A stretch of DNA of 64,000 nucleotides from Atrina japonica (Eukaryota > Mollusca > Bivalvia > Pterioida > Pinnidae), in NCBI GenBank assembly GCA_030159075.1, contig BROG01000452.1:167501-231500 (forward strand), read 5' to 3'. Below the pieces are notes generated by a model. That model searched no databases. It saw only the letters and a program-made list of their open reading frames with translations, and was not told the origin of the DNA. How positions within the stretch are numbered: the first letter of the stretch is position 1; each line of letters starts with the position of its first letter. The translations under genes and the position numbers were made by a program. Below are positions 143 to 61,164 of this stretch, piece by piece.

Positions 143-216
143 AATATAAAAAAATTCAGATACCAATGTATAATTCAATAGAATGTCCAGGACATAGATA
201 CAAATCCGGTAAAATG
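143..216 (-). mobile_element. Penelope-family 3' tail
   Basis: On the - strand this reads TTTTACCGGATTTGTATCTA ... GTCCTGGACATTCTATTGA ... TTGGTATCTGAATTTTTTTA, the last 70 bp of the family tail seen at 40550-40620. Confidence 0.7.
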
Positions 217-327
217 ATAGTCATTAGAATATATTTTAGTTTAAACTCTAAATTCTTCTAAAGCCAACATGAACATCTTTTTACAGTGGTTGCTCTTTGA
301 AGGATGCTGGCTGTACATCAGGTTTAA

Positions 328-470
328 TATTTGGCCTTGTATGATAATACTTTCGCTTTAGGTAATGTGCATCTATCTTAAATTGAAGCTCCACTGATGA
401 AGTCTAATTGACAGAAACGATCGTCCTGAGCATTTTAACTTTGATAGTATGTATGTGGTATTTCAAGTAT
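328..470 (+). repeat. Dispersed repeat carrying hammerhead copy A
   Basis: ATTTGGCCTTGTATGATA at 332 and TTTTAACTTTGATAGTATGT at 433 match 23148-23280. This shows that the hammerhead motif is embedded in a longer repeat unit of at least 130 bp. Confidence 0.6.
388..431 (+). ncRNA. Hammerhead ribozyme-like motif, copy A
   Basis: The invariant core is present in order: CTGATGA (394-400), a stem II segment AGTCTAATTGACA, GAAA (414-417), a self-complementary CGATCG stem III, then the GTC cleavage triplet ending at 425. Stem I arms are GCTCCA and CTGAGC and have decayed to about four pairs. The very short stem III is like the type I hammerheads described in Penelope-like elements and animal retrozymes. 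Cleavage is not shown. Confidence 0.62.
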
Positions 471-2722: not shown

Positions 2723-3294
2723 TATACTACTTAATTACGATTTTATTTAAATCGAACCTTGTTTGTTAATCTATAAAACACTAATATACTTTTAACAGTA
2801 CCGGTAACAACCTTATGCACATATGAACGTTTTGTATTGGCCATTTTAATAAGATGGCCAAACTGGCCAGAAATAAACAATGGCCAAAATTTCCCAATTA
2901 ACAGTATAATTTGAATACATGTTTAAAGAAAATAATTGATCTATATACTGAAATATCTTTGTTTGCACATCACATTCTGTAAATGTAGTATTTTAATTGC
3001 AAAGACAAAAAAGTTTTGAACAGATAAGTTCTGTGTATTGCTGAAAATAAATTCTTCCTGCTGTATTACCATTCTACAACCTTCATTGACTGGCAGATAT
3101 GTTTTATCATATCTAGAATATTTTGAATTTTATAATAGTCCCAGATAATATGTTCAGTTGTCTCTTCAGTTGTTTTACAGAGAAGTACATAGTGAATGAT
3201 CTGTTTGTCTTTTATTTTGAGAAGAAATAAATGTGTACATAGTATCTTTTGACAAATTCTGTGAGGCCGAGAGTTTCTATCAGATATACTTGGG

Positions 3295-3690
3295 CGTGTT
3301 CAACATGTGAACATTTCATATGCAGAGGTAAACCAGTCACTGAAAATTATTGACACAGGTATATCGAAAACCGCGTTTGATTTCAATGTTCCGCAAATTT
3401 TACGGTCGGTATAATAGTCTTGTTTCACTAAGTGAAATGCTGGGTTACCTGTTCTATGGCCGTTGTTGAGACGTCTGTACCAATTATGACGAGGATTCGT
3501 TCCTCGTGTATTTCATTTTGATTTGACTGGACTCACGGCAGGTGTGATAGGTTGACAGGGTATGCTTACTCCTCCATGACACATGATCCCACCCCATGGT
3601 TTTAAGAAGTTTGTGTTTATCTAAATTTAACCATATTTGTACCCATATCCTGGACATCCTATCGATTTATACCTTGGTATCTGAGACTTT
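3295..3690 (+). mobile_element. Penelope-family 3' end with last RT block
   Basis: It begins in the RT segment equivalent to [13 protein letters not shown] (GGCGTGTTCAACATGTGAAC), runs through ATCGAAAACCGCGTTTGAT and TTACGGTCGGTATAATAG, then the tail to TTGGTATCTGAGACTTTTT. It is broken by stops and small deletions. Confidence 0.75.
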
Positions 3691-3721
3691 TTATATATTA
3701 CTTGCAACTTCATTGAGACAG

Positions 3722-4030
3722 AATGCCACGTTTGATGCCAACGTATTGCAAATTTTACGGTCGATATAATAGTCTTGTTTGCGATTACTCTGTTTCGTTG
3801 CCTTTTCGTTGGCGTTTGTTGAGAGGTCTATACAAATTGTGACGAAGATTCGTTCCTCACTTATTTCATTTTCATTTGACTGTGGAATCACATCTGGTGT
3901 GACTTGTCCTCCATGGCACCTGATCCCACTACTTGGTGTCCGTGTTTGTCCATTTTACAAAATTTGTATCTACATCCTTGACATCCTAAAAATTTATACT
4001 TTATTATCTGAGATGTTTTATATTCTTATA
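3722..4030 (+). mobile_element. Penelope-family 3' end, second in tandem
   Basis: It starts near ATGCCACGTTTGATGCCAAC and repeats the RT end and tail of the preceding copy, ending TATCTGAGATGTTTTATA. The two lie head-to-tail about 30 bp apart. Confidence 0.72.
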
Positions 4031-10113: not shown

Positions 10114-12218
10114 ATGGATTATCTGCACGTTTTACTATTCATCCTCGTTATTTTCTACTGCGTCAACTGTGATGTAAGTACATGTATGATACTTTTTCTA
10201 GAATATTTTAACAACAATTATTTAGCCACAAGAAATATCAGCAATCTATATCGTCTTCTAACTGAATAATGCAAATATATAAAAGTATAAAAAAAAACTA
10301 TTCGAGTTCATTCTCGCTACCGAAAGGTAACACATTTAACCTTTATTATCTTGTTAGAAACTGATTTTAATTAAAAGATAAATTATCTATTTTGTAATAA
10401 AATTATATTAATTGACCTTTGTTGGTTTTTGTTTGGTTTTTCTTTTAATTATTCATTTTTGCGGGGTTCCTGTTTCGTTTATTTCTATTATTTTTATGCT
10501 TTATGTTTGATTGTTTTAACCAATAGTTTGATGCTTGTGTTGCTACCAAAGTTATTTTTACATAAGAGGCCAAAACAAATATTTAAAACGATCGTTTTTG
10601 TCAATAACGTCATCAGTTGAACTCTAATTCGATATAACTGCATATGTTCGAAAATAAAAGTTGTATCAAACAAGACCAATAACTTGTCATTTTCATGAAC
10701 AAGTTCTTGTTATGAGGAAAATAACGTTTTAACAGCGCAAAACAATAACACTTGATTAAAGAATATGTATCTATTTTTTTTCAGCATTTGACAAGGCGTC
10801 AAACTAACAGGGGGAGAATTCCGTTTAATGAAAGCCGACGATCGCAACTAAGTCTTGGTAGAGGTGGAGGTTTTAGTAGACAAATCGAAAGATTACAAAA
10901 TTCTAACCAGAAATCTCTTGAACAAAGACGTCGAGAGTTGGATACTTTAACCAGGCGTAATTTGATCCTACAGAGAGAATTATTGAATTTACGACGTCAA
11001 AAGATGAGAGAGAGTATTCGCTTGGACAGTAGAAGGGGAAATTTAAATATGAATATCATTCCACGAAGCAGACAAGAAATGATAATACGAAGACATAGAA
11101 ACATGAACATACTGGCTAACAGACGTCGAAATTTTGGACGAAGAGTTCATTCAAATTTAAGGGCAAATGGCGGCATGAGAAATAACGATAACATAATTCC
11201 AAATCTATTTGAAAGGCATTCTATAGTACCCCGATCCCGATCGCTAAACTTGGATTTAATAACGGAAGGAAATATAAGAAAAAAATTATTCGTGTCAACA
11301 ATGCCCCCAGTATTGTTCAATGGCTTTCCCCATAAAAAACCGAGGCATATTCAACGAGAAAGTATCGTCAGAAATTTTGCACGAAGAATATCTGACGACA
11401 CAACTGATAATAGACATCGTAGTTTGTTCCACGTACCTGTCGTTGCCTCTACACCTCCTCCAAATAGACAAACGTTGGATTTGCACGCGCTTTTATCAAA
11501 CGTTGTCTCTAATCATAAACACAGGGATATTCCAGTAACTGAAACAGCTGACAGTCCAGTTACCATCCCGAACCCGTCACACATTACAAAACCGTCTGTT
11601 AATATAGACGACATAATTACAGCAATGCTCTTAAAAGGTGAAATACTTGTGCAAAATAATGAACAATTGGCACCTGCACAGTCACAAATTGTAGTTCCGA
11701 ACATTATGATTATGCCGACTCCGCCCATACCACTGCTGGCAACGTTTCCCCCGACTATTCCACCGACTCCGTCTGCTTTAGATAAGGCAATACATTTTAA
11801 AATCCTTGAAGAACTTGGTTTTGATTTATCAACAGACACTCCAGAGCTTCCAGAAGGAGCAGCACAAACTATGAAACCAAAACCAAAACCAAAACCAAAA
11901 CGGAAACCAGTAAAGAAGACAAAGATTATAATGGGAAAATCAGCGCCACAAAAAATTGGAAAAAATAAAAATCCTAAGCCTAAACACAGAACAATTAAAC
12001 CTAAAGATAAGAAACATAAAATAGTACCTACAACACTCTCACCAATAAAGATATTTTTTTCGAATGACGGCATATCTACGAATACCCCCATACAAAAAAT
12101 CCCGAAGACAGGTACCATATCGCATCAAGGATCTATACCTATGCTAATAACGCCACTTGGTAACTTTACTTTAGAACTGGCGAGCAATACTACAAACAAT
12201 GGTTTCGTAATAGCTTAG
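10114..12218 (+). CDS. Two-exon secreted Arg/Pro-rich protein (unknown family)
   Basis: The CDS joins 10114-10173 and 10785-12218 and gives 497 residues. Exon 1 has a good start context (A at -3, G at +4) and encodes a 20-residue hydrophobic leader ending CVNCD. It is followed directly by donor GTAAGT; exon 2 starts after a pyrimidine-rich tract and CAG, and the frame is kept (phase 0). Cleavage is likely near residues 19-20. Residues 21-50 are Arg/Ser/Gly-rich. Residues about 51-100 (SRQIERLQ to RESIRL) look like a charged coiled coil. Residues about 100-200 are very Arg/Asn-rich. Residues about 290-370 hold an acidic/hydrophobic stretch and a Pro-rich segment (PTPPIPLL, PPTIPPTP). A Lys-Pro tract (KPKPKPKPKRKP) lies near 383-394, followed by a Lys-rich region and a short Gly/Asn C-terminal segment. 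I recognise no named domain. A secreted matrix or adhesive role is inference from the leader, basic charge and low complexity. Confidence 0.85.
10174..10784 (+). other. Phase-0 intron of the Arg/Pro-rich secreted protein gene
   Basis: The intron begins GTAAGT at 10174 and ends with a T-rich tract and CAG at 10782-10784. It separates the signal-peptide exon from the single long exon that encodes the whole mature protein. It is AT-rich, and the short ORFs inside it have no recognisable content. Confidence 0.85.
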
Positions 12219-22697: not shown

Positions 22698-23147
22698 GAT
22701 ATTATTGTTAACAATGTGAAAATATAAACCGAGGCGGTAAAACAGTATTTTCTCAATATATGATGCATCGAAAAGATGTGCCCTATTTGTTGATCATCTT
22801 GGTTGACGTTATAAACAAATAGGTCGTGGACAGTTTATAGTCAGTATTGACAATATGTGATGTTTTATTGAAATGCTGCCTGGTACTAATACGCATTCGG
22901 TAAAATACTGCATATGCATAGTCTGTTAAAAGCTTAATCTGTTGTATACTTCAAATCATTTACACCTAAAGACACCTAAAGACACAGTTGGACTGGTTTG
23001 ATTGATTGATTTTCAATGGAGTCCACTATTTCCAGGTGTTGGTGGGTTAAACACTTTCGACCTTTGCAAATAGAGATGATACGCTGATCAGGGGACGTAA
23101 TCACATCATTTACCCGGTATTCAAGCTCAATTAAATAGTCATTATAA

Positions 23148-23285
23148 TTTGGCCTTGTATGATATTATTTTCTAATTAGAAAATAGGCATACTTTATGTA
23201 TTTAAATTCAACGGAAGAAGTCTAACTGACAAAAACGATCGTCTAGAGCATTATAACTTTGGTATCATGTTTATGATATCCAAGA
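23148..23285 (+). repeat. Dispersed repeat carrying hammerhead copy B
   Basis: Same unit as 328-470, with a small insertion. The element end after TTTGGTATCATGTTTATGAT agrees with the - strand sequence next to copies C and D. Confidence 0.6.
23206..23249 (+). ncRNA. Degenerate hammerhead-like motif, copy B
   Basis: It aligns to copy A including upstream sequence (TTTGGCCTTGTATGATA at both). The core is mutated: CTGATGA became CGGAAGA and GAAA became AAAA. The CGATCG and GTC parts remain. Almost certainly inactive. Confidence 0.5.
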
Positions 23286-23589: not shown

Positions 23590-23935
23590 TTTTGATGCCG
23601 CAGAGTAATCGCAAACAAGGTTGTTATACCGACCTAAGCTTGCCATTAACTAGTTTACTTCTGTATATAAAATGTTGGTACGTTGAACATGATTGGCGTA
23701 TCGGATCATTTGTTAGATATAAACACTATATGCATTTGATTGAGGAATATTACTACTTAAATGTGGAAAAACTAGAATGGGGAATCCGAAATTGTAGCGT
23801 TTGCTGAATAGCCTACTGGCTGTGTCTATAACAAACAACAATGTAAAATTAGAGAAAACAGCCAGTTTCGTTTTCTTTTCTGATTCAAATAAAGAAGTAA
23901 AAGTCAGTATCTTTTTGCCGCTATATTTCACAGTT
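23590..23935 (-). mobile_element. Penelope-like RT fragment
   Basis: On the - strand 23930-23715 encodes LFSKRYNFGFPILVFPHLSS and NIPQSNAYSVYI, matching the [21 protein letters not shown] block of the 39.6-kb copy. About 23640-23590 encodes GRYNNLVCDYS, the last RT block. The stretch between is deleted or rearranged, and the usual 3' tail is not seen next to it. Confidence 0.65.
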
Positions 23936-27860: not shown

Positions 27861-30459
27861 TTTTTTTTTTTTTTTTTTATTAAATTTTTTAACATATAAA
27901 TAATTACATACATAGGTGTATACAAGAGACAGAGACAACTTTCGCACACCCTTTCGCACAGCTTATATATTTTATGTACATGTTTTGTAAAGCTGGATAT
28001 CAACAAGACTATAATGATATTATGTGCACTGTCATTTTATGAAAGCATATTACTTGCAAAAATTTCTTAAAAATGTTAATAACAATATACATTATGTAGA
28101 TTAATGGATCAGTGATCCCCCAGGGCTATAGAAAATTTTTGCCATCTATTGTTAAAAAATTCACTTCTATTACTTTTTGTGTATATCATTTTTTCTGTCA
28201 TATGATAGTGTTTAAGTTTATTTAAAAAAGGCGCAAGCTCAGGTTTCCTTTTCTGAATTTTCATCGAAAAAATATATTGTTTTGCTAAAATCAAAGCTAA
28301 ATTAACAGAGTTACTGTAATTTTCACAGAGTTTTTTACCAAGTATTATGATTTCTTTATCCAAATTTACATATAATTGACAATATGTATCCAGCCAGGCA
28401 AATAGCTCGCTCCAAAATGATTTTGTTATGTTACATGTAAAAAACAAATGAAGAAGACTTTCTTCCTCTGTATTGCAAAAAGTACACATATTAGACTCTG
28501 AAATGTGCATTTTGAATAACAATTTATTGGTTGGTAAAAATACGGTGTAATAATCTGTATTGGAACCATCGAATTGTAGTATCAATAGTTACTGAAAAAA
28601 GGCATTTTATTTACAAAGTTTTTGTTGGTTTCTTCCTCCTCGATACCAAATTCATCACACCATTTTGTTATATAAGTATTTTTAAAACTATTAATTTACT
28701 CATAAAGATATCATATACTGAGGTTTTATAATTCTTATTTTTAATTAAACTCTTAAGGTATTCAGGAATATGAGGTAAAGTGATTTGAAAATTGTCATGT
28801 CTGGCTTGTGGCCATTTCCTCAATATACATTGTTTTATTCCATAGAATGTTGTTAGGGGTGGGTAATAGATAATAGAGAATGATGATAATAGAGCTCCAT
28901 TTTCATTAAATAAATCATAAATGTAAATTATCTGATTTTGAACCCATCTCTTGTAATTTACTGTTTTATTATCAATTTTGATATTATCATTATGCCATAA
29001 TTCTTGATAAATGAAACTTTTGCTATCTGCAATTTTATGTTCACATTTTCTGAATTCATAAAAAGATTTAAGTACATCCTTCCAAAATGGGTTAATGGTA
29101 TGATTGTATGTAATTATCTTTTTAATATAGTCTGGACCTGTTTTCAAAATAGTGTCTAGAGTTGATTTTACGTTGCTCTGAAATAGCTCTAATAGAATGG
29201 AATTATTAAGAATAAGTCTGTTCATCCATTTTAATTTTAAAGAATTTATAAATACAGAAACATTTACCATTTTCAGACCCCATCCTCATATTTCTGATAT
29301 AGTTGATTTCTTGATATCTTATCATTTTTATTATTCCAAATAAATTTGAAAAAAAGCTTTTCCAATTCATTTATGAAAAAATTGTCTGGATTTGGAATTG
29401 AAATAAATAAGTGAGTAAGACGAGATAATAATATTGTTTTTATGACAGTAATTTTACCAATAGGGCTTAATATACGTTTAGACCAACTTGCAATTATTTT
29501 TTTAATGTCTTGTAATTTATTTGTATAATTTAATTGAATCATATCTTGTATATTTACACTAAACACTATGCCAAGATAGGTAAAAGGATTATCAGACCAG
29601 ATAAGTGGTGTATCATTACAAAGTTTTGTTTGACTATGTTTTTTTGACCCTAACCATATGCATCTACATTTATCAATATTTGGCTTAAGGCCTGAGTATT
29701 TGGCAAATTGTTCTAGTAAAGAGAGTGAATTTTTTAAAGATTTCTGTGATCCATCTAAAAATAAACCTGTATCATCTGCATACTGACTTACTTTTACTTC
29801 TGTATTATTTACTCTGATACCTTTAATTTCTTTGTCATTTCTTATGAGTATGCATAAAATTTCTGCACAAAGTAGGAACATATAAGGTGAGATTGGGTCG
29901 CCCTGACGACAGCCACGACCAACATTAAAAGAGGCTGAAGTAAATCCATGTTGTAAAATACATAATTTAAAATTTTTGTTGAGACAGTTAAAATAGTTTA
30001 TAAAATTTGTACCAAAATTAAGATAAGATAATACTTTATTTATAAAAATTCCAGGAAACCGAATCAAAAGCTTTTTCAAAGTCTATCATAAAGAAAAGTC
30101 CCTTTTCGTTATCCTGTTCTAACTTATTCATAATATCATATAATAATCTAGTATTTTCACCTATATATCTATTTTTCATAAAACCTGTTTGATTTTCATG
30201 TATAAGATAAGGGAGAACGTTTTTAATTCGTGATGCAAGACAATTTGAAAAAATTTTGTATGTAACATTTAACAACGAAATAGGGCGCCAATTTTTTTAA
30301 AAATTCTCTGGGTTTTCCCCCTTTAGGCAAAATTGAAATGATTCCCATTTTCTGACTTGTTGAGAGTTCTCCATTTTCTATACATTCCTTAAATGATCTA
30401 AATAAGAAGAATTTTAAGTCTGGCCAAACAAATTTAAAAAATTCAGACGAAAAACCATC
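27861..30459 (-). pseudogene. 5'-truncated, frameshifted L1/Tx1-like LINE
   Basis: On the - strand, conserved blocks of a non-LTR reverse transcriptase follow in order. From about 30459: a SDGFSSEFFK-type block, then ENQTGFMKNRYIGENTR and DFEKAFDSVSW near 30200-30050. Then GCRQGDPISPYMFLLCAEIL and the catalytic YADD box (SQYADD, about 29790), GLKPNIDKC and FTYLGI. The end carries a Cys/His zinc-binding motif (CTFCNTEEESLLHLFFTC, about 28490) typical of LINE C-termini. The frame breaks at least near 30060, 29275 and 28590, so it is not functional. A run of about 19 T at 27861-27878 is the 3' poly(A) tail read on the - strand. The same 11 bases, AGAACTATATT, flank both ends. The endonuclease and first ORF are absent, as expected for 5' truncation. 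Confidence 0.88.
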
Positions 30460-35998: not shown

Positions 35999-37336
35999 AG
36001 CCAGACGTTTGTTTATTTCCTTTGATGAAATATTACCAAACAAGTGATTTAAACTTGTAATTTGAATTAAGTTTTTAAATACCAAAAGTGAATTCAGATT
36101 AGCTGTGTAGTGATTGTCAATTTAGAAACTGTGATCCCGTTTTGAAGCAAGTCGAATCGGCCACCTTGGAGATTGCTTCGTGTAGGGAGAGCATGGTAAT
36201 AGTGAAGTATCCAGTTTACTTTGAAATCGTAATCATTGAGTATGAAGCTACCCGCGGATCCCAGTAAAGAGTAATAACAAAGAAAAGGAAATACTCTAAA
36301 GTAAACAGGACAAGTTATTTGTTAACAATAAGCCAAACTGCCCAAAAAGTGATGAAATATGTGAATTACCCAGTCTATAGTACATGTATATTATGCTGAT
36401 ATGGTAGCATCGCTGGTGACAGATGCCGCTTTATAAAAATATTGGAAGCTAAATGTATGCACTACGGGGAAATATTTAGGATAACCACGGGTGTGTCGAA
36501 AATGTCCGTCACTCGGGTAACTGTCCTGTATGTCTCCATAACTATTCTGTCAGTCCTAAATATAATGTGGTTAGAACTGACTGGTGACAGAGAGACACAT
36601 GACGTTTTGTGTGGGAAATTCCCTGGATAAAGTTTATTCTATTTTTAGAAATATATGTTCCTGTATGGTCAGTTGTGTGCGTAACTGCTTATTATTCGTC
36701 GGAGGTTTTTGGACATGGATAACGCATTGGTCCTTCTTTTGACACCCATAATTCAATTAAAAGAATACGCCCTGACTCCCTCCCGCCCAGGAAGAGAAAA
36801 ACTGTTTTGTCAGATAAAGCAATTAACTACTGTTGTTTTCCTTGTAAATGTAAATGCCATCTTTACGATAGATGATCTAAAGAAGGTATGTACAATGCAT
36901 AGATCAATTATGTTTCAGTTCCGATGCAAAAAGGGAAACAACGCTGTAAACTCTGATAATGTATCATTTATCTCCAGGAAAATGTTCGCGTATTTGTTGT
37001 TGTTATAGCTTCTGGCAATATTTGTTGTTCGATTCAATATATCCTTACAGGTCGATACGGTTCAGTCCGAGTTCCGTGTATTTCAAATTCAATAAAATAA
37101 TGACGTCATATATACAGTCGTCGACTCTCTTGACAGTCTGGGAACACATATTTTAAGTGTGACTTTCCAACATCACCGGCTAATGTGAATAGAAACTGAA
37201 GGACGATATATGGAATAAATAATGCACTGTGCCTCTGAAGCGAGATATGTATAACTTTCACAAGATTGCAATCAGCTCTATCTAATAGTATAATGAATTA
37301 ATGTAAATATTATAAACATAATACCAAAGTTAAAAT
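35999..37336. other. No recognised gene
   Basis: Overlapping + ORFs (36442-36630, 36709-37008) have short hydrophobic stretches and a GTATGT near 36890, but I cannot join them to anything. Confidence 0.35.
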
Positions 37337-37382
37337 GCTCAAGACGATATCGTTTCTGTGAATTAGACTTCATCAGTTGAGC
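37337..37382 (-). ncRNA. Hammerhead ribozyme-like motif, copy C (best)
   Basis: On the - strand: GCTCAA (37382-37377), CTGATGA (37376-37370), a 13-base stem II segment, GAAA (37356-37353), CGATATCG (37352-37345), then the GTC triplet and TTGAGC (37342-37337). GCTCAA and TTGAGC pair perfectly over six bases as stem I. CGATATCG is self-complementary with almost no loop, so stem III would be stable mainly between two RNA copies. Stem II has one mismatch (GTC against CAC). All core bases are intact. Confidence 0.68.
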
Positions 37383-37993
37383 TCCATTTTGAAAAGTATG
37401 TGTTTTTTCTAAAAATAAAAACGATGTGTTTGGAGAATACGATACCCCAACAACGCAGTCATTTATGAATATTTTTAAATCGCATAGCTCTAGCAAATAG
37501 TACTAAATGTTCAACACAATCACAGTATTTTGATAACTTATCAAAACTACAACTAGGTAATTTATCAAATTAGTTATATTTTCAGAAACGAAACACAAAT
37601 TATTGAGCTTGAAAGCTACACATTGCACAAAGAATATTGCCCTTTATGCACAGTTGGAGGAACTATCATTGTTACTTTTCATTATGGTTCTGTTCTTTAA
37701 AAACGGAATCGTTTGCACTTTGCTTTCATTTGATGACATAAGAATGTTGTAAACCTTTTTTTTCCTCAAAAGACGGAAAATGCAAAATAAAAAAAGAATA
37801 AAGATAATAAAGAAAGATTTGGAATTTAAATGGTGTTATCAGTGCCAAATATTACTTTAGTATAAGATTATCGGCTGGTACCGAAATACCAGGTAATAGG
37901 TTTATGTATACCCTCGGGGACTCAAATGGTCCACTAGTAGTGGCAACGACCTAGTGGTTATAAATATCATAGACATAATACCAAAGATATAAT

Positions 37994-38032
37994 GCTCAAG
38001 ACTATATCGTGTCTGTCAATTATCAGTTGAGC
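37994..38032 (-). ncRNA. Broken hammerhead-like motif, copy D
   Basis: It keeps the six-pair stem I (GCTCAA and TTGAGC) and GTC, but seven bases spanning the end of CTGATGA and stem II are deleted and GAAA is GACA. It is in the same orientation as copy C, 650 bp away. Inactive by sequence. Confidence 0.55.
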
Positions 38033-38344
38033 TCCGGAAACGCGGTTTTCGATATGACAAATGAATTACATACACATATCAAACATGCATCCAGGTGTCT
38101 TGAATGACAAGCCAGTTGTTATGTAAATCAAACATTACCATGTCATTTGTCATATTATTTCATATCATTTCAGAATGAGCTGACACTGTGTTTAAATATG
38201 TACTTAATTTATATATCTGTTTGAGTTCATCATTCAATAGTCGATTGGTTCACGTGAATAATGCGTTAATATCTTCCAGATAAAACGATATGTCGGGACG
38301 TGTTTATCATATGGAATTTCATGTATAAAGACAGACAACTTGCC

Positions 38345-39483: not shown

Positions 39484-40620
<1,137 letters not shown>

Positions 40621-41924: not shown

Positions 41925-42765
41925 AACTGTTTTTCCACTAACGGTGGTACACGATACTTATTTTGTCGAGCACCACTCTGATTCTACACATAAATACACT
42001 GAAGTTGATATAAATATTTGCTGGAATTTCTAATGGACAATATTTAATGTAATGTTTGGAGACTTGGCAACAAATTGTTGGCATTCCTATGGAAACAAAT
42101 TGTGTCCCTTTATTAGCCGACTTGTTATTTTATCTATGCGAAGCAGACTTCATTCACAAACTGCTGAACCAACAAAAACAAAAACAAAAAAGTAAAAAAT
42201 AAAGAAAAGAAAAGAAAAAAACTACCAGTGTCCTTTAATTTGAATCTAAATATAGCGACGACTTTCTGTCAATGAATAATGACAATTTTCATACATACGT
42301 CAATGCAGTATTTACTATCGAACTAGAAATTTAAAGATACAACAGAATCAAGCCCAAACGATTTATACTTAAACATTTTACTTACTATATAGGGCGTGTT
42401 CAGCATATGAACATTGCATATACAGATGTAAACTACTCACTTACAAATTATTTACATGGGGATATCGAAAACCGCATTTGATGTCAACGTTCCGCAAATT
42501 TCACGGTCGGTATGATAGTCTTGTTTGCGACTACTCTGTTTTAACTAAGTGAAATGTTGCCTTTTCGTTGATGGTTGTTGAGACGCCTGTACCAATTGTG
42601 ATTCGTTCCTCACTTACGGTGGGTGTGACTTCTACAGGGGATGCTTACTCCTTCATGGCAATTGATTCCACCTCTTGGTTTCCACAGGTCCATGTTTGTC
42701 CATTTTTACCAGATTTGTATCTGTATCCTGGACACCCTATAGAATTATAGTTTGGTATCATAGAT
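41925..42765 (+). mobile_element. Decayed second copy of the Penelope-like RT and tail
   Basis: It starts at the same point as the copy at 39.6 kb (GACAACTGTTTTTCCACTAA) and follows it through the TEVDI, GIPMETN-type, YSELEI and GYRKPHLMSTFRKF blocks to the 3' tail ending near 42760. Stops, indels and an A-rich insertion near 42190 destroy the frame. The YIDD region is mutated. Confidence 0.72.
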
Positions 42766-43873: not shown

Positions 43874-44010
43874 TCAGATACCAAAGTATAAATCAATAGG
43901 ATGTCCAGGACAAAAGGCAACTCAACATTTCACTTAGTGAAACAGAGTAGTCGCAAACAAGACTATTATACCGACCATAAAATTTGCGGAACATTGACAC
44001 AACATCTAGA
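43874..44010 (-). mobile_element. Penelope-family fragment with internal deletion
   Basis: On the - strand the RT end (GCGGCAA-free form: TTCCGCAAATTTTATGGTCG to CACTAAGTGAAATGTTGAG) joins directly to the final GTCCTGGACATCCTATTGA and TTTGGTATCTGATA. About 170 bp of tail is deleted between them. Confidence 0.68.
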
Positions 44011-45027
44011 GACCGCCATAGAGTTTTTAATTTGCTTTTTAAAACTAATTTTCTTACAAAATTACTATAGGAAGTGATGGAACCACTTATATTTGAGCAT
44101 TAAATTTGTTTTGATAAATACCCACAACATATCACAACATATATGATATAAACAGTTCCATCTTCTGTCAAAATAATTATAAATAATACTTAGTTAGTTT
44201 TCTGGGGTCATGTCTATTGTGTGTGGAAAGACAGGACCATGGTGCACAACACACAATGTCATTATGGTTGTTTGTCTTAGACATATGCCACTGTATCTAA
44301 TTTCAAGACTCTCGTTATACCAAAAAAAATTGTGCTTTTGAGTGCTACTCCAGTGATTTCACTCGTTACCCTGGATACCGGGCGTAATACGGTTTTTACA
44401 TAGATCCTGTGCTAGTTATCTAGCAAAGGACTTCACTTTAAATTTCGGATCGTCAATCTTACAACAAATAGCACTGAAGCATATTTTCTATTTGTTTTGT
44501 TTGTTTATTTTGTTATCAGATATATGATCGTAGCCAGTTTTTACCGATGAAGCAGATAACCCTTTACAATATAGTCGGGATAAAATTACCGACCTTCTTG
44601 TAACTGGCAATTTGTTTTATTTGCAAAAGTATCATTGTAATTTGACATGTATATCGAACAATACAAACTGTATCTGTCATTGCAATTCGGACAGTGGTAT
44701 TAGAGGTAATATATTATGTGATATGCTATTTTTTGTTATCTTAAATGAGCTGAAATAGTTATGATAAATATGGGAGAAAAAGCGAATCAATGTGGAATGA
44801 CATAAAGTCTACAGTTGTATTTAAAACAGTAAATTCCGTTTGGAGACAGATGATTATTTATGGTATCAGGGGTAAAATTATTTTCAGATTTGAATGTTTC
44901 ATCAAATCTAAAGTTGTAAATGAAACATATTTATTCCGATGGATTAGGGACATACCATTGTTAATTGCTCCTCAGGTCGGCCCATTTCAATTGTGTTTTT
45001 TTTTGTCTTGAAGTTCTCTCTAGACAT
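44011..45027. other. No recognised feature
   Basis: Short ORFs only, none with recognisable content. Confidence 0.4.
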
Positions 45028-46389: not shown

Positions 46390-49300
46390 TTAAAAATCGG
46401 GTCTAATTGTAGTAGGTTTGTTCTTTGAGCTATTACCTTTTCCGGGTGGTTTCGCTTTGATTTCATCACTCTCGCGTTCAAAGTCAAACTTAAAGTTTGG
46501 AGGAACTGTGGGTTGTTTTTGTTGTACAATTCTTAATGTTCCAGAATCCGCAGATCCAGATATCTCAATGACACCCCCAGCTTTCAACACGAGCGGATTT
46601 TCTTTTCCATTTGGCTGTAGTTTTATAACATTGTCTGTTGATAAAGCTTTAGGATTAGCATGTAGTGTTGGTGAAAGTTCAATTTTTGTCCCAGATCCAC
46701 CTAACATAAGGGTTCCATCCCCACCCCCAGCGGACTCAAAATTGGATAATAGTTTTTCTGTCATAAGTGACATTAAACCAGCATCCCCTAAAGCAGATTG
46801 CGATAAGAGTGGACCTGAAGGGCCAACAGTAAGTGGAAGGCTAGGAGCTGCGGGTAGAGGTTTAGGTGCGCCTACAACTATCTCAGGGAGTCCCTTTTCA
46901 CCTGCCATCATCGCAGCAAGAGTTTGAAATTTGTCCAAATTTAGTTGTTGCTGCATGTCGTTCATCAACACACTTTCAAGAATACGATGCATGTTATTGT
47001 TCGCTAAGCTTTCACCATTCGTTTGACTACCTCCAGCAAGAGTTTGTAATCCGCTGGTTGCACTTCCAAAATTACTGCTCAATCCACTGCCAAAATCAAA
47101 ACCTAAGTCTCCCCCAAATCCAAAATTCAAATCACTAAGACTACCTATTCCACCACTAAAACCACCTAGTCCACCACTTAAACCAATTGCACTACTCATT
47201 CCATTACTTACACCACTTGTACTACCCATGCCACCACTTACACCACTTCCACCACCCATTCCACCACCCATTCCACCACCCATTCCACCACCCATTCCAC
47301 CACCCATTCCACCACCCATTCCACCACTACCAGTATTTTTGCCATTTGTTCTGCCATTAACACCACCCAGAATGTCAACTTTTATACCACCGTCTACTCC
47401 ACCTCTAACACTACCACCTGCTCCACCTTGCCAACCACTTCCTTTACTCATTGAACGACCTCCATGTCTATCAATTACCATTCCTAAACCATTCCCATGG
47501 GAGGTTTTCTTCCTTTGTGTATCACCATGTCCAATACCAACTCCTTTCCTACTATTATGATGCTCTCTAATATTACTGCCACCATGACCAACAATTTTCC
47601 CACCAACATGGCCTCCAATCTCACCTCCTATATGACCTCCTATATCGCCACTGAGATGACCTGTATCAATGCCCAAATGGCCACCGATGTCCCCACCAAT
47701 ATGGCCTCCAATATCATTGCCAATATGACCAATATCTCTTCCAATATGACCTATATCCCTGCCAATATGACTTATATCACTGCCAATATGACCTATGTCA
47801 CTGCCAATATGACCTATATCTCTGCCAATATGATGCATGTTTTTGTTATTGAGATGAATTATGTCCCCACGAATATGACTTCCCACGTCACTGCCAATAT
47901 GACTTATATCCCTGCCAATATGGCCCCTCTTTTTGTTACCTCTTTGACTTCTATCTCTTCCGATATGACCTCTAGATTTTGGAACAGTATGGCCTGTACC
48001 TTTGCCTCTATGTCTATTTATACCACCTCCAACATGGCCTCTTGTTTTACCAGAATTATGATCCCTGCTAATTTGACCTCCTATGTCTCCGCCAATATGA
48101 CCTCTAATCTCCCCGCCAATATGACCACCTATTTCCCCACCAATCCCCCCACCAATTTCTCCACCAATTCCTCTCCCCCCATGACCGCCTATTCCGGCAT
48201 CAATCCCTACACCTATTCCTCCATCAATGTGACCGCCTATTCCACCACCAATCCCCCCACTGATTCCTCCATCAATATTACCGCCTATTCCGCCACCGAT
48301 CCCTCCACCTATTCCTCCATCAACATGACCGTCTATTCTGCCACCGATCCCACTACCTATACCTCCATCGATATTACCACCTATTCCACCACCGATCCCT
48401 CCACCTATTCCTCCATCAAAATGACCGCCTATTCCACCACCAATTCCTGCACCTATTCCTCCATCAATATGACCGCCTATTCCACCACGACCAGAACCTC
48501 TGATACCACTTTCGATGTGACGCCGAGAACCACCTCTTTTTCTGTCACCGATATCACTAATTCTATCGCCAACACCACTTCCTGTCAAACTACCTATACC
48601 GCGACCACTCACACTTCGAACACCACCCCCAATGTTTCCACCAAGATTTCCTTTTCCACCAGAAGCACCTCCACTAGTCACTCTCCCTCTGCCACCTATT
48701 CCACTTTCTTTTCTGCGACCTTCACCACCTCCAATACCTCGCCTCCTACCGATTTTTCTTCCACTAATTTTTCCACCCCTTTTTTGGCCCCCAGTACCAC
48801 CACTTTTACTCCCTGAGATAGAACCGCCTCTTACCCTACCATGATTCCTAGGCAAAACTTTAATATTGTTATGTCTTTTATTATTTCCTCCTTTTATATA
48901 TCGGATTCCTCGTTTTCTGTTTTGCGCGCTGTTTTGGCGTCGGCGTTTAAGTAGCTCCTTTATATACTGTTGTCTCTTTAAATTTCCTAGATCTGCATTG
49001 TTAGCTTTTTCTACATTTCCCAGATTGCCACGGCGTCTAGATTGTGTCTGAACATTCCTTCTTGAACTTTTCCCAGGAAATGTATTTTGTTTGCTTCCCC
49101 GGCCTCTTTTTAAATTATTTAATAGGTTAGACATGTTGTTCTTTCTAGACCGTACTTTATGGAATGGGAATTTCGAAACGTCGGAAGATGATGGTTTCCG
49201 TAGTCCTGATTTTCCAAGCATTTGCCTTCCCATTTGAGCAACCATTTCACCGCCCGGTCTATTATCCATGATTCGGTTCAATGTGTTACTCACAGAATTA

Positions 49301-49539
49301 GTTAGTGCTTGACCCTGCTTTTGATTTAGAATTCCGGCACTTGATCTGCTCTTCCCAGTTACGGCCCCAAATGCAGCACCATTTTGGAAACGAGCTGAGA
49401 ACTGCCCACGGGAATTTTTTCTTCGACCATCCATTATAACAATACCATTAGCAGTACCCTTGGGGATAAAATTTGGATTCATATTATTTCCACGTGACTT
49501 TGCATTTCGTTTGTTTATTAGGTTGCCATGTCCATTTTT
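46390..49539 (-). CDS. Gly-rich repeat protein, last exon (probably secreted)
   Basis: One open exon of 1049 codons runs from a splice acceptor (CTATTTCAG on the - strand, 49548-49540) to a TAA at 46392-46390. The first internal Met is at 49482, but the frame is open upstream to the acceptor (KNGHGNLINKRN...), so that Met is unlikely to be the start. Counting from the acceptor: residues 1-300 are Lys/Arg/Asn/Gly-rich with dibasic sites. About 350-456 is a 16-residue repeat of the type IGGHIDGGIGGGIGGG. About 456-526 is looser IGGE/GHIGG. About 526-650 is a 7-residue repeat GHIGxDI. About 736-766 is GGGM. After 766 it becomes non-repetitive, with NNNMHRILESVLM, a Pro-rich stretch (APKPLPAAPSLPL) and a probable beta-rich end (VLKAGGVIEISG). 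No named domain is recognised. Silk, shell-matrix or byssus-like structural function is inference. A 5' exon with a signal peptide is expected but I did not find it. Confidence 0.8.
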   Translation of the reverse strand, partial: KNGHGNLINKRNAKSRGNNMNPNFIPKGTANGIVIMDGRRKNSRGQFSARFQNGAAFGAVTGKSRSSAGILNQKQGQALTNSVSNTLNRIMDNRPGGEMVAQMGRQMLGKSGLRKPSSSDVSKFPFHKVRSRKNNMSNLLNNLKRGRGSKQNTFPGKSSRRNVQTQSRRRGNLGNVEKANNADLGNLKRQQYIKELLKRRRQNSAQNRKRGIRYIKGGNNKRHNNIKVLPRNHGRVRGGSISGSKSGGTGGQKRGGKISGRKIGRRRGIGGGEGRRKESGIGGRGRVTSGGASGGKGNLGGNIGGGVRSVSGRGIGSLTGSGVGDRISDIGDRKRGGSRRHIESGIRGSGRGGIGGHIDGGIGAGIGGGIGGHFDGGIGGGIGGGIGGNIDGGIGSGIGGRIDGHVDGGIGGGIGGGIGGNIDGGISGGIGGGIGGHIDGGIGVGIDAGIGGHGGRGIGGEIGGGIGGEIGGHIGGEIRGHIGGDIGGQISRDHNSGKTRGHVGGGINRHRGKGTGHTVPKSRGHIGRDRSQRGNKKRGHIGRDISHIGSDVGSHIRGDIIHLNNKNMHHIGRDIGHIGSDIGHIGSDISHIGRDIGHIGRDIGHIGNDIGGHIGGDIGGHLGIDTGHLSGDIGGHIGGEIGGHVGGKIVGHGGSNIREHHNSRKGVGIGHGDTQRKKTSHGNGLGMVIDRHGGRSMSKGSGWQGGAGGSVRGGVDGGIKVDILGGVNGRTNGKNTGSGGMGGGMGGGMGGGMGGGMGGGMGGGSGVSGGMGSTSGVSNGMSSAIGLSGGLGGFSGGIGSLSDLNFGFGGDLGFDFGSGLSSNFGSATSGLQTLAGGSQTNGESLANNNMHRILESVLMNDMQQQLNLDKFQTLAAMMAGEKGLPEIVVGAPKPLPAAPSLPLTVGPSGPLLSQSALGDAGLMSLMTEKLLSNFESAGGGDGTLMLGGSGTKIELSPTLHANPKALSTDNVIKLQPNGKENPLVLKAGGVIEISGSADSGTLRIVQQKQPTVPPNFKFDFERESDEIKAKPPGKGNSSKNKPTTIRPDF

Positions 49540-49724
49540 CTGAAATAGATAAAAATATGCATTCGAAAACGATAAATATTATCAATTTGCAATACTTATT
49601 CAGATCTAAGAGGACTAATAGGGGAACTGTAATTATGTCTTTATTTAAATTAAAACACGATTGGTAGTGTGAAAAGACGGAGATAAAGATTAATTGTATT
49701 TGAGTTTAGATGTAATTGAGTAGT

Positions 49725-58307: not shown

Positions 58308-61164
58308 ATTGTAATATTATAATATTTATATTCATTACCATTTTTCAGTGAAACTGTAGTCCACTGGATACTAAATTCATTCCAGAACATTGACTTTGCG
58401 GGGGTGTTTTCATATGACGTTATGGCTCAACAGCTGTTTTGACATGAGAAGTAGTTCTCTTTTCTGATCGCAAATACTAATGAAATTAAGGTTTAATTAT
58501 TTTTTTAATTTCATTTTGAAAGAAACTAGTGACATGGACAATTTTGACCACTTATTCTCAGATTTAGTTCGCGATTTTTAATATTCGACCATTTAGTAGT
58601 GGCGGGTTAAATGTGTCAGAAGAGAATTGCCCGAATTTGCCGTGTACAAATGGCTGATATGCCTACCATGTGCGATTTGGATAATAACAGATGATCGTTG
58701 TTTACAACAAATTTTAGTTTGAATTCTGATATTTTATCAGTAGAATAAACCACAGAAAGTTTGAGTGTGATTGTTAATATTCGTCCATGACGTCCATTCT
58801 ATTTGATATTTCACCAATCGCTGAATCAGCTGAGAAATGCCTTGGACTGTGAAGGGTTGACGGTTTCGTGAGTAGACCTATTTCAGTATATATTCTAGCC
58901 CACTAGCAAATCCTTCAGATCAATTGAAACAAGACAAATGCAGATTATGTTGTGAAATAACAAACCTTTACAGTTATGTTGAAAAGATAATTATCGACAC
59001 GTTCGTTATGGAAAATCCGTGTAGGCCTATAAATTATAATAGATCCATATGTCAATTCAGACATCAGTTTTTACCAGCTGATCATATACAGTATCCCGTC
59101 AATTTACTGAGAAACCTATGAACACTACTCATGTTCGGCATTAACATTACAGATTGTGAAAAACAAGATGGGCCTGGTAATTAGCCTCGCAATTAATTGG
59201 ATTTGAAGTGTACTGAGAGTCGATTTCACGCGATGCGAGTAATGAATTGTTTCTGACAGGAAGAGCCTATATGGCGACGAAAAAGCAAGCTAGTTATCAG
59301 AGATGCAGGACAAAATTGCACCAGACCTGACTCCCTTTTCGACTTACTTACAAGCAACGTAACTACGAAGCAAATTTTTATTCTGTGGCCTGTGTTTCTT
59401 TTCATAACATGAATTAGATCTATCCCAATAGGCCTATGATATGGGCATGTACAGTGTACTACTATTTCGATTTCTTTCAGTGATTTTTGTTTGTTTTGTG
59501 GTAATTAATATCTTTGAATAAAAATATGGAATTAATGTGTGTTATTTTATTATTTATTGATTCATCCATATGTTCAGATAATACTTGTCCGACCAATCGC
59601 TGCCGTAACATGGTCATGGAAAGGGTTTCTTAGATATTTAGTTATTCCTACGCCAGCCAGCGGTTAACACTTAGATCACGTGATGAGCCACTGGTGTTAT
59701 TGATACAAAAATTAGGTCATTCTGTATAACTGTAATGAAGGAAATTACAGTCGGTATGTAAATACATATATATATATTTTATGCAACACACACACACATA
59801 CATCTGACCAGGTATAATACCATTTTGTTTCGATTTCCTACATCTATTTCACATTCTATATCTACTGATTAATTCTTGTTGACAGTAACATTCGCCTTGA
59901 GTATTTGTTTTGGCGTTTATTTAAAAAAAAGTACCTTTACGCTTATACTATTTATAGAAATATTTCCGACGAAAAAAGGAGTCAACAGTAAACACAATGT
60001 ATCAACATCATGTGAAATAAACATTTTTTACATATTTGATTATACTGAGATATATCTATCTTGACCTGTTTCTCGCGTAAGATTGACCGTGGTGTGTTTC
60101 TCAGTTACGCTTATTATTTATTTGTGTTGATGTTTATAGCAAACATTAATCATCTATATGATATAGAAACTTCATTTACGTTGTACTTAGAAAATCATGT
60201 CGGAAAACGAAAAAATACCAGTTATGTATTAGATTAAATTCGAACTAACTACACGATGTGTTTTAAATCACTTCCAATCTGATCAACACATCACCCAATC
60301 ACCCCAAACATAGTGCATATCCCGAAACCGACACCCTCTGTAAAAACATATTTACGAAATCAATATTCATTGACTGCATAAAGGTGAATATCTCTTATAC
60401 ACATATCACTGTAAAAAAACTATATGATTTTTACAAGTCAGAAGTAAAATCAATCAATATAGTTATACGTACGTATAAACAAATTCCAATGAGTCCATTT
60501 AGTAATAACTACACTTCGTTTACGGTATTAAAGTTTCAGCGATTTATTATCATACGATTAATTACTATCCCCGCGTTATCTTTGTATAGCTACAGAGTTT
60601 TCTTTACCCGCATATCCAATGCATGTCACTTTGTTGGTTTAATGATGATAATAATTGCGTTTACTTAGATTGAAGGGCTGTATTACAAATGGATCAATCC
60701 CCACGTTTAATTGGACTCGCCGTCTAATTCGAATCTTTAAATAAAAAACAAAGGTTATTCAAATGTCATGAAAATTAAGTCTTCCGTGAAATTATATATA
60801 ATATAATATTTGATTTGAACTAATTACTGTGGTTACTTAAAATTACTCCTCAAGAGTTTTACTATAGTTTCTATTTTAAATTAGAACCCCAACGTTTAAT
60901 TTTAATACATGCTCCTTTTGCTTCATAAGGTATTATCAAATAGTTTGATTAAAGTTTAAAAGATATGTTTATACGTTAGTTAGAGTTAACACTTAGGTTT
61001 CATGTTAATTAATCCTTACACAGTTTATAATTGTTATTTTATTTTAGCAAAAATAGTCCATTATAATGATACAATTAAAAAGATAATTATGTTTGATAGT
61101 TCTAAGAGTTTATCTTTTTACTTTTTTTTATTTTGCATATTTTACGCTACACCCCATATTTTTT
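58308..61164. other. No recognised feature
   Basis: About 2.9 kb with only short ORFs (up to 94 codons at 60384) and a small TA/CA patch near 59765. Confidence 0.4.

What the first reader, a model, noticed from the sequence alone, without database searches (positions are those of the whole stretch)
37337..37382. Hammerhead ribozyme motif with intact core and minimal stem III
On the - strand CTGATGA, GAAA and GTC occur in the right order. A perfect six-pair stem I (GCTCAA with TTGAGC) is present, and stem III is a palindrome (CGATATCG) with no room for a loop. That geometry is known from Penelope-like elements and animal retrozymes, where two copies act as a dimer. I see the bases directly; self-cleavage is inference. 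One stem II mismatch may weaken it.
Basis: partly seen in the sequence, partly recalled or inferred. Interest (0 to 1): 0.78.

Follow-up and report, generated by a model that had tools for sequence, protein, structure and literature searches.

The report
Decayed hammerhead in an animal retrozyme
The motif is a worn copy of a hammerhead ribozyme from a small, very abundant jumping element whose fresher copies elsewhere in the same genome still look able to cut their own RNA, probably in pairs.

Summary
The bases are as described. The motif alone is weak: the relaxed core pattern is no commoner in the window than in shuffles, and Rfam reports no hammerhead at the site. But it is one of six copies of a dispersed repeat in the window, and that repeat is a hammerhead family. 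In the window's own genome (832 Mb), CTGATGA-N-GTC-N(3-8)-GAC-N-GAAAC occurs 8,371 times against 1 for the reversed control. A young array of a 374-bp unit, 99% identical, carries one hammerhead per unit; another has 185-bp units. Of 93 copies scored, 46 end at one 3' boundary, 36-46 nt past the predicted cut, and 22 run into another unit. This fits an animal non-LTR retrozyme. The window holds one interrupted dimeric insert (37305-38035, -).

The family has an unusual A.A between core and a 3-bp stem II, also in the young array. Folding allows a dimeric hammerhead for the family, not for this copy. A Penelope-like element in the same genome has a different, ordinary-core hammerhead. Cleavage, circles and mobiliser are inferred.

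The parts
37377..37382 (-). c1 hammerhead, stem I 5' arm GCTCAA
   Evidence: read directly; pairs with 37337-37342
37370..37376 (-). c1 core CTGATGA
37357..37369 (-). c1 stem II region AGTCTAATTCACA; in the young array AGTCTTAATTGACA (A + GUC/GAC + A)
   Evidence: array sequence; this copy has G to C and one T fewer, leaving 2 pairs
37354..37356 (-). c1 core GAA (G12 A13 A14 in hammerhead numbering, recalled)
37344..37353 (-). c1 stem III palindrome ACGATATCGT, same as in the young 374-bp array
37337..37343 (-). predicted cut after C at 37343, then stem I 3' arm TTGAGC (37342-37337)
   Evidence: cleavage not tested
37305..37419 (-). c1: 3' end of the retrozyme insert (unit 51-166), hammerhead plus the family 3' tail
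   Evidence: 94% to the array unit; ends at the common 3' boundary
37420..37776 (-). 357 nt unrelated to the unit, interrupting the insert in place of about 71 nt of unit
   Evidence: its only match among the loci then held was itself
37777..38035 (-). c2: upstream retrozyme unit (unit 85-353) with a damaged hammerhead (37991-38037) and the body
   Evidence: 84% over unit 85-353; 89% over unit 85-309
278..466 (+). c3: single retrozyme copy, hammerhead 383-434 with the family core intact and stem III ACGATCGT
   Evidence: Rfam RF00163 18.3 bits, below cut-off
23143..23279 (+). c4: single retrozyme copy, core decayed (CGGAAGA, AAAAAC)
   Evidence: 80% to unit; core read
10541..10688 (-). c5: diverged copy of a third subfamily (extra stretch after stem I)
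   Evidence: nhmmer E 5.6e-31 with a profile that included it; 74% over 94 columns
59795..59941 (+). c6: most diverged copy
   Evidence: nhmmer E 5.7e-28 with a profile that included it; not recovered by the later profile

Best explanation
The site is a degenerate copy of a hammerhead ribozyme belonging to a non-autonomous, non-LTR retrozyme present in thousands of copies in this genome, taken to be an animal's. Proposed cycle: multimeric transcripts are cut at GTC/TTGAGC by hammerheads that pair two by two through the palindromic stem III and stem I (inferred from folding); monomers of about 330-390 nt are sealed into circles (inferred by analogy with published animal retrozymes); a reverse transcriptase supplied in trans starts at one internal place 36-46 nt past the cut and copies round the circle (inferred from the common 3' end, ragged 5' ends and head-to-tail multimers). 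In the window one such dimeric insert sits at 37305-38035 (-), later interrupted and mutated; its hammerheads are probably no longer active.
For: Six copies in the window. 8,371 genome matches to the family core against 1 control. Array of 4.8 units of 374 bp at 99% identity, one hammerhead each. Head-to-tail spacings of 336-386 bp at 14 of 59 sources scanned (8 loci cut, 10 picked from its list partly because tandem, 40 more from its list, and the window) and 184-187 bp at one; 7 head-to-tail pairs at 330-359 bp among the first 100 places; one more pair, 346 bp apart, in a locus fetched for another reason (L060). Common 3' end: 46 of 93 copies that scored at least 60 end at unit 160-174, 22 of 93 run on into a further unit. 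Sharing between copies falls off upstream. Six further places taken: 6 of 6 the same family, 3 with the common 3' end, 2 running into the unit body, 1 disrupted just past the core (read by eye). Published animal retrozymes: type I hammerheads in 150-450 bp tandem repeats, mussel 350-390 bp (PMC7229834, sections 13 and 14).
Against: No Rfam hammerhead hit at the site or in 853 bases of the young array. RF00163 gave no match in the genome at E 0.001, though only 73 of 92,384 candidates were scored and the control genomes were silent too. Pair counts show no covariation beyond shuffles. In 46 copies left after the N14-pattern class was dropped, core positions are no better kept than the rest of the 80-nt module (0.904 against 0.888, p 0.51). 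The circular fold of the unit is no more stable than shuffles (z -0.24), whereas published retrozyme circles are described as highly self-paired. No clear target-site duplications in 13 inserts. 25 of 93 copies end at neither the common 3' end nor a further unit. No RNA data.
Confidence: 0.85

Rival explanations
1. The hammerhead belongs to an autonomous Penelope-like element (PLE): the copies are 5'-truncated ends of PLE insertions, with the hammerhead in the pseudo-LTR.
For: Common 3' end past the hammerhead and ragged 5' ends resemble the PLE 'tail' made by internal initiation (PMC11167929). A PLE with its own hammerhead does exist in this genome: in L059 and L066 a GIY-YIG domain (28.9 and 27.2 bits, cut-off 22.6) lies upstream on the same strand.
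Against: That PLE hammerhead is a different family with an ordinary core (CTGATGAG...CGAAAC) and stem III ACACGTGT or ACATGTGT; its profile hit only its own four loci among all loci held then. For the retrozyme, sharing between 110 copies drops from 70 at the hammerhead to about 8 at -350 and 1 at -750, with no long flank common to them; RT fragments nearby lie on either strand. The longest frame in the doubled 374-bp unit is 38 aa in sense and 82 aa in antisense.
Confidence: 0.08
2. The conserved 80-nt module is a recognition hairpin for the mobilising enzyme and only looks like a hammerhead; it does not cleave.
For: Core positions are no more conserved than the rest of the module; A.A next to the core departs from the usual hammerhead (recalled); monomer hammerhead is 3.6 kcal/mol above the best fold.
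Against: Core letters, their order and spacing, six-pair stem I, GUC/GAC stem II and stem III palindrome coincide in a young family arranged in tandem units, where animal hammerheads are known to sit; a second family with a different 185-bp body shares this module.
Confidence: 0.12
3. Chance match in AT-rich sequence.
For: Core pattern alone is not enriched in the window; no Rfam hit.
Against: 8,371 against 1 genome-wide, homologous copies, tandem array.
Confidence: 0.01

Closest known systems
Animal non-LTR retrozymes with type I hammerheads (Cervera and de la Pena 2020, PMC7229834), mussel family above all
   Same: One hammerhead per unit, head-to-tail units of about 330-390 bp (mussel 350-390), low G+C (0.32 here), thousands of dispersed copies.
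   Different: A.A between core and a 3-bp stem II; circular fold not specially stable. The mussel sequences themselves (figures and supplement) were not seen, so likeness in sequence is untested.
Minimal hammerheads of Penelope-like elements and Terminons
   Same: Very short, palindromic stem III, probable dimeric action, common insert end downstream of the hammerhead as in the PLE 'tail' (PMC11167929).
   Different: Here inside short tandem units without a long ORF. The PLE hammerhead of this same genome has an ordinary core edge (G...C), a different stem I (CATTGC/GCAATG) and stem III. Cervera 2014, Lunse 2017 and Arkhipova 2017 are not held; known from citations and recall.
Viroid hammerhead with an extra core nucleotide (De la Pena and Flores 2001)
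   Same: A natural hammerhead with an added nucleotide in the core; title seen in the reference list of PMC6155905, its exact place recalled.
   Different: Here an A on both strands, the commonest state in a family of thousands.

Membership tests
Hammerhead ribozyme, type I | Core CUGANGA ... GAA and A-U before the cleaved H | tested here: met
   window c1 and array unit; type I because the helix is open at stem I (directly read)
Hammerhead ribozyme, type I | Stem II directly on the core (G10.1-C11.1, recalled) | tested here: not met
   an extra letter on each strand; first 100 places: letter after CTGATGA A 87, C 8, T 4, G 1; letter before GAAAC A 98, T 1, G 1. Ordinary CTGATGAG-N(6-10)-CGAAAC: 8 matches, control 5; none of the 8 has GUC/GAC, and 4 of the 8 belong to the PLE family
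Hammerhead ribozyme, type I | Match to Rfam RF00163 over its cut-off | tested here: not met
   none at c1 or in 853 bases of the array; c3 18.3 bits against 34
Hammerhead ribozyme, type I | Self-cleavage | not testable with these tools
   needs a transcription assay
Animal non-LTR retrozyme | Hammerhead in head-to-tail repeats of about 150-450 bp | tested here: met
Animal non-LTR retrozyme | G+C below 50%, non-coding | tested here: met
   G+C 0.321; longest frame in the doubled unit 38 aa in sense, 82 aa in antisense; up to 96 aa antisense in the array itself
Animal non-LTR retrozyme | Circular and linear unit-length RNA in tissue | not testable with these tools
   no RNA data
Animal non-LTR retrozyme | Highly self-paired circular RNA | tested here: not met
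   z -0.24 against 100 dinucleotide shuffles
Animal non-LTR retrozyme | Target-site duplications longer than 4 bp, when present | tested here: inconclusive
   13 inserts, approximate left ends, none clear
Penelope-like element | RT + GIY-YIG ORF bounded by pseudo-LTRs that hold the hammerhead | tested here: not met
   no long flank common to the 110 copies; the PLE found has another hammerhead. A whole-genome search for PLE ORFs was not run

The most novel reading that the evidence does not exclude
A hammerhead sub-class in which an A.A step separates the catalytic core from a 3-bp stem II, kept by a family of over 8,000 copies, cutting essentially only as a dimer through a palindromic stem III; its circles are copied by a PLE-type reverse transcriptase that starts at one internal site 36-46 nt past the sealed cut, so that the insert ends record rolling-circle reverse transcription.
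Probability: 0.3. Interest if true: 0.68.

Novelty: new variant of a known kind. Interest (0 to 1): 0.5.

Why it matters
How animal retrozymes are reverse-transcribed and inserted is, as far as I know, not settled. This genome offers a large family with a fresh array, a common 3' end beyond the cut site, ragged 5' ends and a Penelope-like element with its own hammerhead in the same nucleus, which makes a circle-as-template, internal-start model directly testable. The A.A at the core edge would, if active, widen the accepted hammerhead core, and it may be one reason why a standard model misses the family.

Tried and rejected
C/D-box snoRNA: Rfam lists snR47 weakly on c3 (20 bits, cut-off 61) because UGAUGA is also a C box (recalled); the tandem, dispersed family argues against it. 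Other weak Rfam hits at the site (snR32, tracrRNA and others) are far under cut-off. A tRNA-type internal promoter in the body (GTTTGAGTCC resembles a B box, recalled): ARAGORN finds no tRNA. A smaller internal repeat within the 155-nt copies: not significant, lowest shuffle fraction 0.088. Covariation: none beyond shuffles. Constraint on the core: none visible. Exact family core in viral contigs and in bacterial/archaeal genome contigs: 0 and 0. Covariance model R1 was built but cannot be used on this genome. Papers: none in the held library combines hammerhead ribozyme with cephalopod or with Penelope and octopus, and Naiad with GIY-YIG and hammerhead gave none; the species is unknown to me, so these searches say little. 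Whether the A.A variant is in print was not settled: searches gave listings, of which I opened four papers (PMC7229834, PMC7761336, PMC11167929, PMC6155905), and three key papers are not held.

Full report
Observation. Stem II in this copy is AGTCTAATTCACA: only two pairs, flanked by A.A and C.C. The relaxed core pattern occurs twice in the window against 1.64 expected, and Rfam lists no hammerhead here at its own cut-offs or at E up to 10 over 1,001 bases.

A repeat family. The second match, at 394 (+), proved to be homologous. Self-comparison gave six copies in the window: 37305-37419 (-), 37777-38035 (-), 278-466 (+), 23143-23279 (+), 10541-10688 (-) and 59795-59941 (+). The copy at 388-431 gives a type I hammerhead match in Rfam of 18.3 bits, under the cut-off of 34, E 0.037 over 141 bases.

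The window's own genome. G000 holds 832,074,514 bases in 2,347 contigs, and the window is C452:167501-231500. A first pattern (CTGATGA-N14-GAAACG) gave 113 matches against 10 for the reversed control and led to tandem arrays. At C423 (L009) a 374-bp unit is repeated 4.8 times at 99% identity, each unit with GAGCTCAACTGATGAAGTCTTAATTGACAGAAACGATATCGTCTTGAGC. The stricter family pattern CTGATGA-N-GTC-N(3-8)-GAC-N-GAAAC gave 8,371 matches against 1. Among the first 100 places listed I counted by eye 7 head-to-tail pairs at 330-359 bp. In 58 loci and the window (332,866 bases) a profile found 110 copies, with 21 head-to-tail spacings of 336-386 bp at 14 loci and five of 184-187 bp at L017. The loci came from the first pattern, some chosen because they were tandem, so these are not frequencies for the genome. 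L017 shares with the 374-bp unit little more than the hammerhead and the 3' tail, 66-106 aligned columns per unit: a second family with a different body.

Insert ends. The 18 ends laid side by side (one of them an inner L017 unit) stop within a few letters of ...TTTGGTATTATGTTTATAATATTT; they had been placed by the alignments. Of 110 copies, 2 were dropped for lack of downstream sequence and 15 for a score under 60. Of the remaining 93, 46 end at unit 160-174 (five of these are inner L017 units where its own body begins, and one place at L034 is counted twice), 22 run on into another unit, and 25 end elsewhere, ten of them at unit 137, probably where a third subfamily has an insertion. The predicted cut lies after unit 128, so the usual end is 36-46 nt past it. 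5' ends vary, and sharing between copies falls off upstream. Six places taken rather than from the first pattern gave 3 with the common end, 2 running into the unit body and 1 disrupted. Since the insert runs across the cut site without a break, the template was an uncut or resealed RNA; with head-to-tail multimers and a common start this is what copying round a circle would leave. That step is inference.

The window's insert. Unit 85-353 lies at 38035-37777 (84% over 271 aligned columns; 89% over unit 85-309) and unit 51-166 at 37419-37305 (94%), on the - strand, with 357 unrelated nt in place of about 71 nt of unit. I read this as one dimeric insert, 5'-truncated just before stem I, ended at the family 3' end, later interrupted. 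Two separate inserts are possible, but the first would then lack the family 3' end.

Stem II and A.A. The family has A-GUC...GAC-A: one A on each strand between core and stem II. In the first 100 places the letter after CTGATGA is A 87, C 8, T 4, G 1, and the letter before GAAAC is A 98, T 1, G 1 (my count). As it stands in the 99% identical array, it is not decay of old copies. That the usual hammerhead has G10.1-C11.1 at this place is recalled. A viroid hammerhead with one extra core nucleotide is cited in PMC6155905 (reference list only).

A second, ordinary hammerhead family. CTGATGAG-N(6-10)-CGAAAC has 8 matches against 5 in the control, and none of the 8 has the GUC/GAC stem. Four of the 8 (L059, L060, L065, L066) are homologous: CATTGC before the core, a stem II such as GCGUUUUAACGC in L066, ACACGTGT or ACATGTGT after it in L059, L065 and L066, and GCAATG further on in L065 and L066 (read by eye). 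L059 and L066 share about 760 nt upstream at 79%, with a GIY-YIG domain over Pfam's cut-off on the same strand (28.9 and 27.2 bits against 22.6). This is a Penelope-like element with its own hammerhead, which Rfam also scores under cut-off (18 bits, RF00008, L066; no match at gathering scores in five loci). Its number in the genome was not obtained. It shows that PLE machinery has been in this genome and that the A.A core is not shared by every hammerhead of this genome.

Folding. For the array hammerhead, the monomer hammerhead fold is -9.5 against a best fold of -13.1 kcal/mol, and the dimeric hammerhead -31.4 against a best dimer of -31.7 (twice the monomer optimum is -26.2). For the window copy the values are -4.5 against -13.2 and -21.4 against -35.6. 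Nearest-neighbour energies do not model the catalytic core. So the family may act as dimers, and this copy probably not at all.

Results against the reading. No covariation beyond shuffles; no extra constraint on core positions in 46 copies; the circular unit is not unusually stable; no clear target duplications in 13 inserts; no RF00163 match in the genome search at E 0.001, with 73 of 92,384 candidates scored and no control ringing; no Rfam match in 853 bases of the array at E up to 2.

Comparison. Published animal retrozymes are type I hammerheads in tandem repeats of 150-450 bp, 350-390 bp in mussel with about 5,000 hammerhead copies, seen as circles in tissue (PMC7229834: abstract, passages, sections 13 and 14). 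Many type I hammerheads have a weak stem III and work as dimers (PMC7761336, passages). An anole PLE starts reverse transcription inside its RNA, leaving a 'tail', and has a hammerhead (PMC11167929: abstract and other passages, and the first of two parts of the main text). I file the element as a retrozyme-like family, as a variant: tandem layout, hammerhead, size and composition are met; circular RNA is untested; strong self-pairing is not met; and the stem II edge departs from the usual hammerhead. The species is not known to me; that it is an animal is inferred.

Noticed in passing
L059 (core at 1524, -), L066 (1524, -), L060 (1523, -), L065 (1524, -): Penelope-like element with GIY-YIG domain and an ordinary-core hammerhead with palindromic stem III, distinct from the retrozyme family.
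   Followed up: partly
window 39597-40391 (+), with fragments at 41950-42540, 3279-3466, 3720-3800 (+), 23596-23820 and 43911-44075 (-): Reverse-transcriptase ORF weakly matching RVT_1 (E 0.0017); only solved-structure match is telomerase RT (E 0.0097); 7,901 of 8,000 scored candidates related in the protein collection; 51 match segments, itself included, over the window and 58 loci. Looks like another Penelope-like element inserted beside a (TA) repeat; the name is recalled.
   Followed up: partly
window 144-214 (+) and ten further places listed (9208, 40551, 42704, 52607 and others): Short high-copy element, several copies just downstream of the reverse-transcriptase fragments, perhaps their 3' tail.
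   Followed up: no
L017: 185-bp tandem units sharing little more than hammerhead and tail with the 374-bp family; stem I 5' arm differs (TTTCAA).
   Followed up: partly
L001, L005, L008 and window 10541-10688: Third subfamily with about 24 extra nt between stem I and the 3' tail.
   Followed up: no
window 340-418: Weak match of c3 to the JPX_2 lncRNA model (16.3 bits, cut-off 48), whose consensus holds CACUGAUGAGG...GCAGAAAC; probably chance.
   Followed up: no
L062, about 1501 (+): CTGATGA-GCC-UAUA-GGC-GAAAC, a perfect short stem II on an ordinary core but no stem I seen beside it.
   Followed up: no
L027 upstream of 1562 (-) and L054 upstream of 1622 (-): 640-bp segment 91% alike at nearly the same distance upstream of a hammerhead copy; no long frame seen in L027.
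   Followed up: partly
window 46390-49578 (-) and 10749-12218 (+): Long open frames: 1,062 aa glycine-rich, and 489 aa with no relative at E 0.001 among 7,996 scored candidates.
   Followed up: partly
window 28109-30296 (-): Broken LINE-type reverse transcriptase, RVT_1 at E about 1e-14 in two pieces.
   Followed up: no
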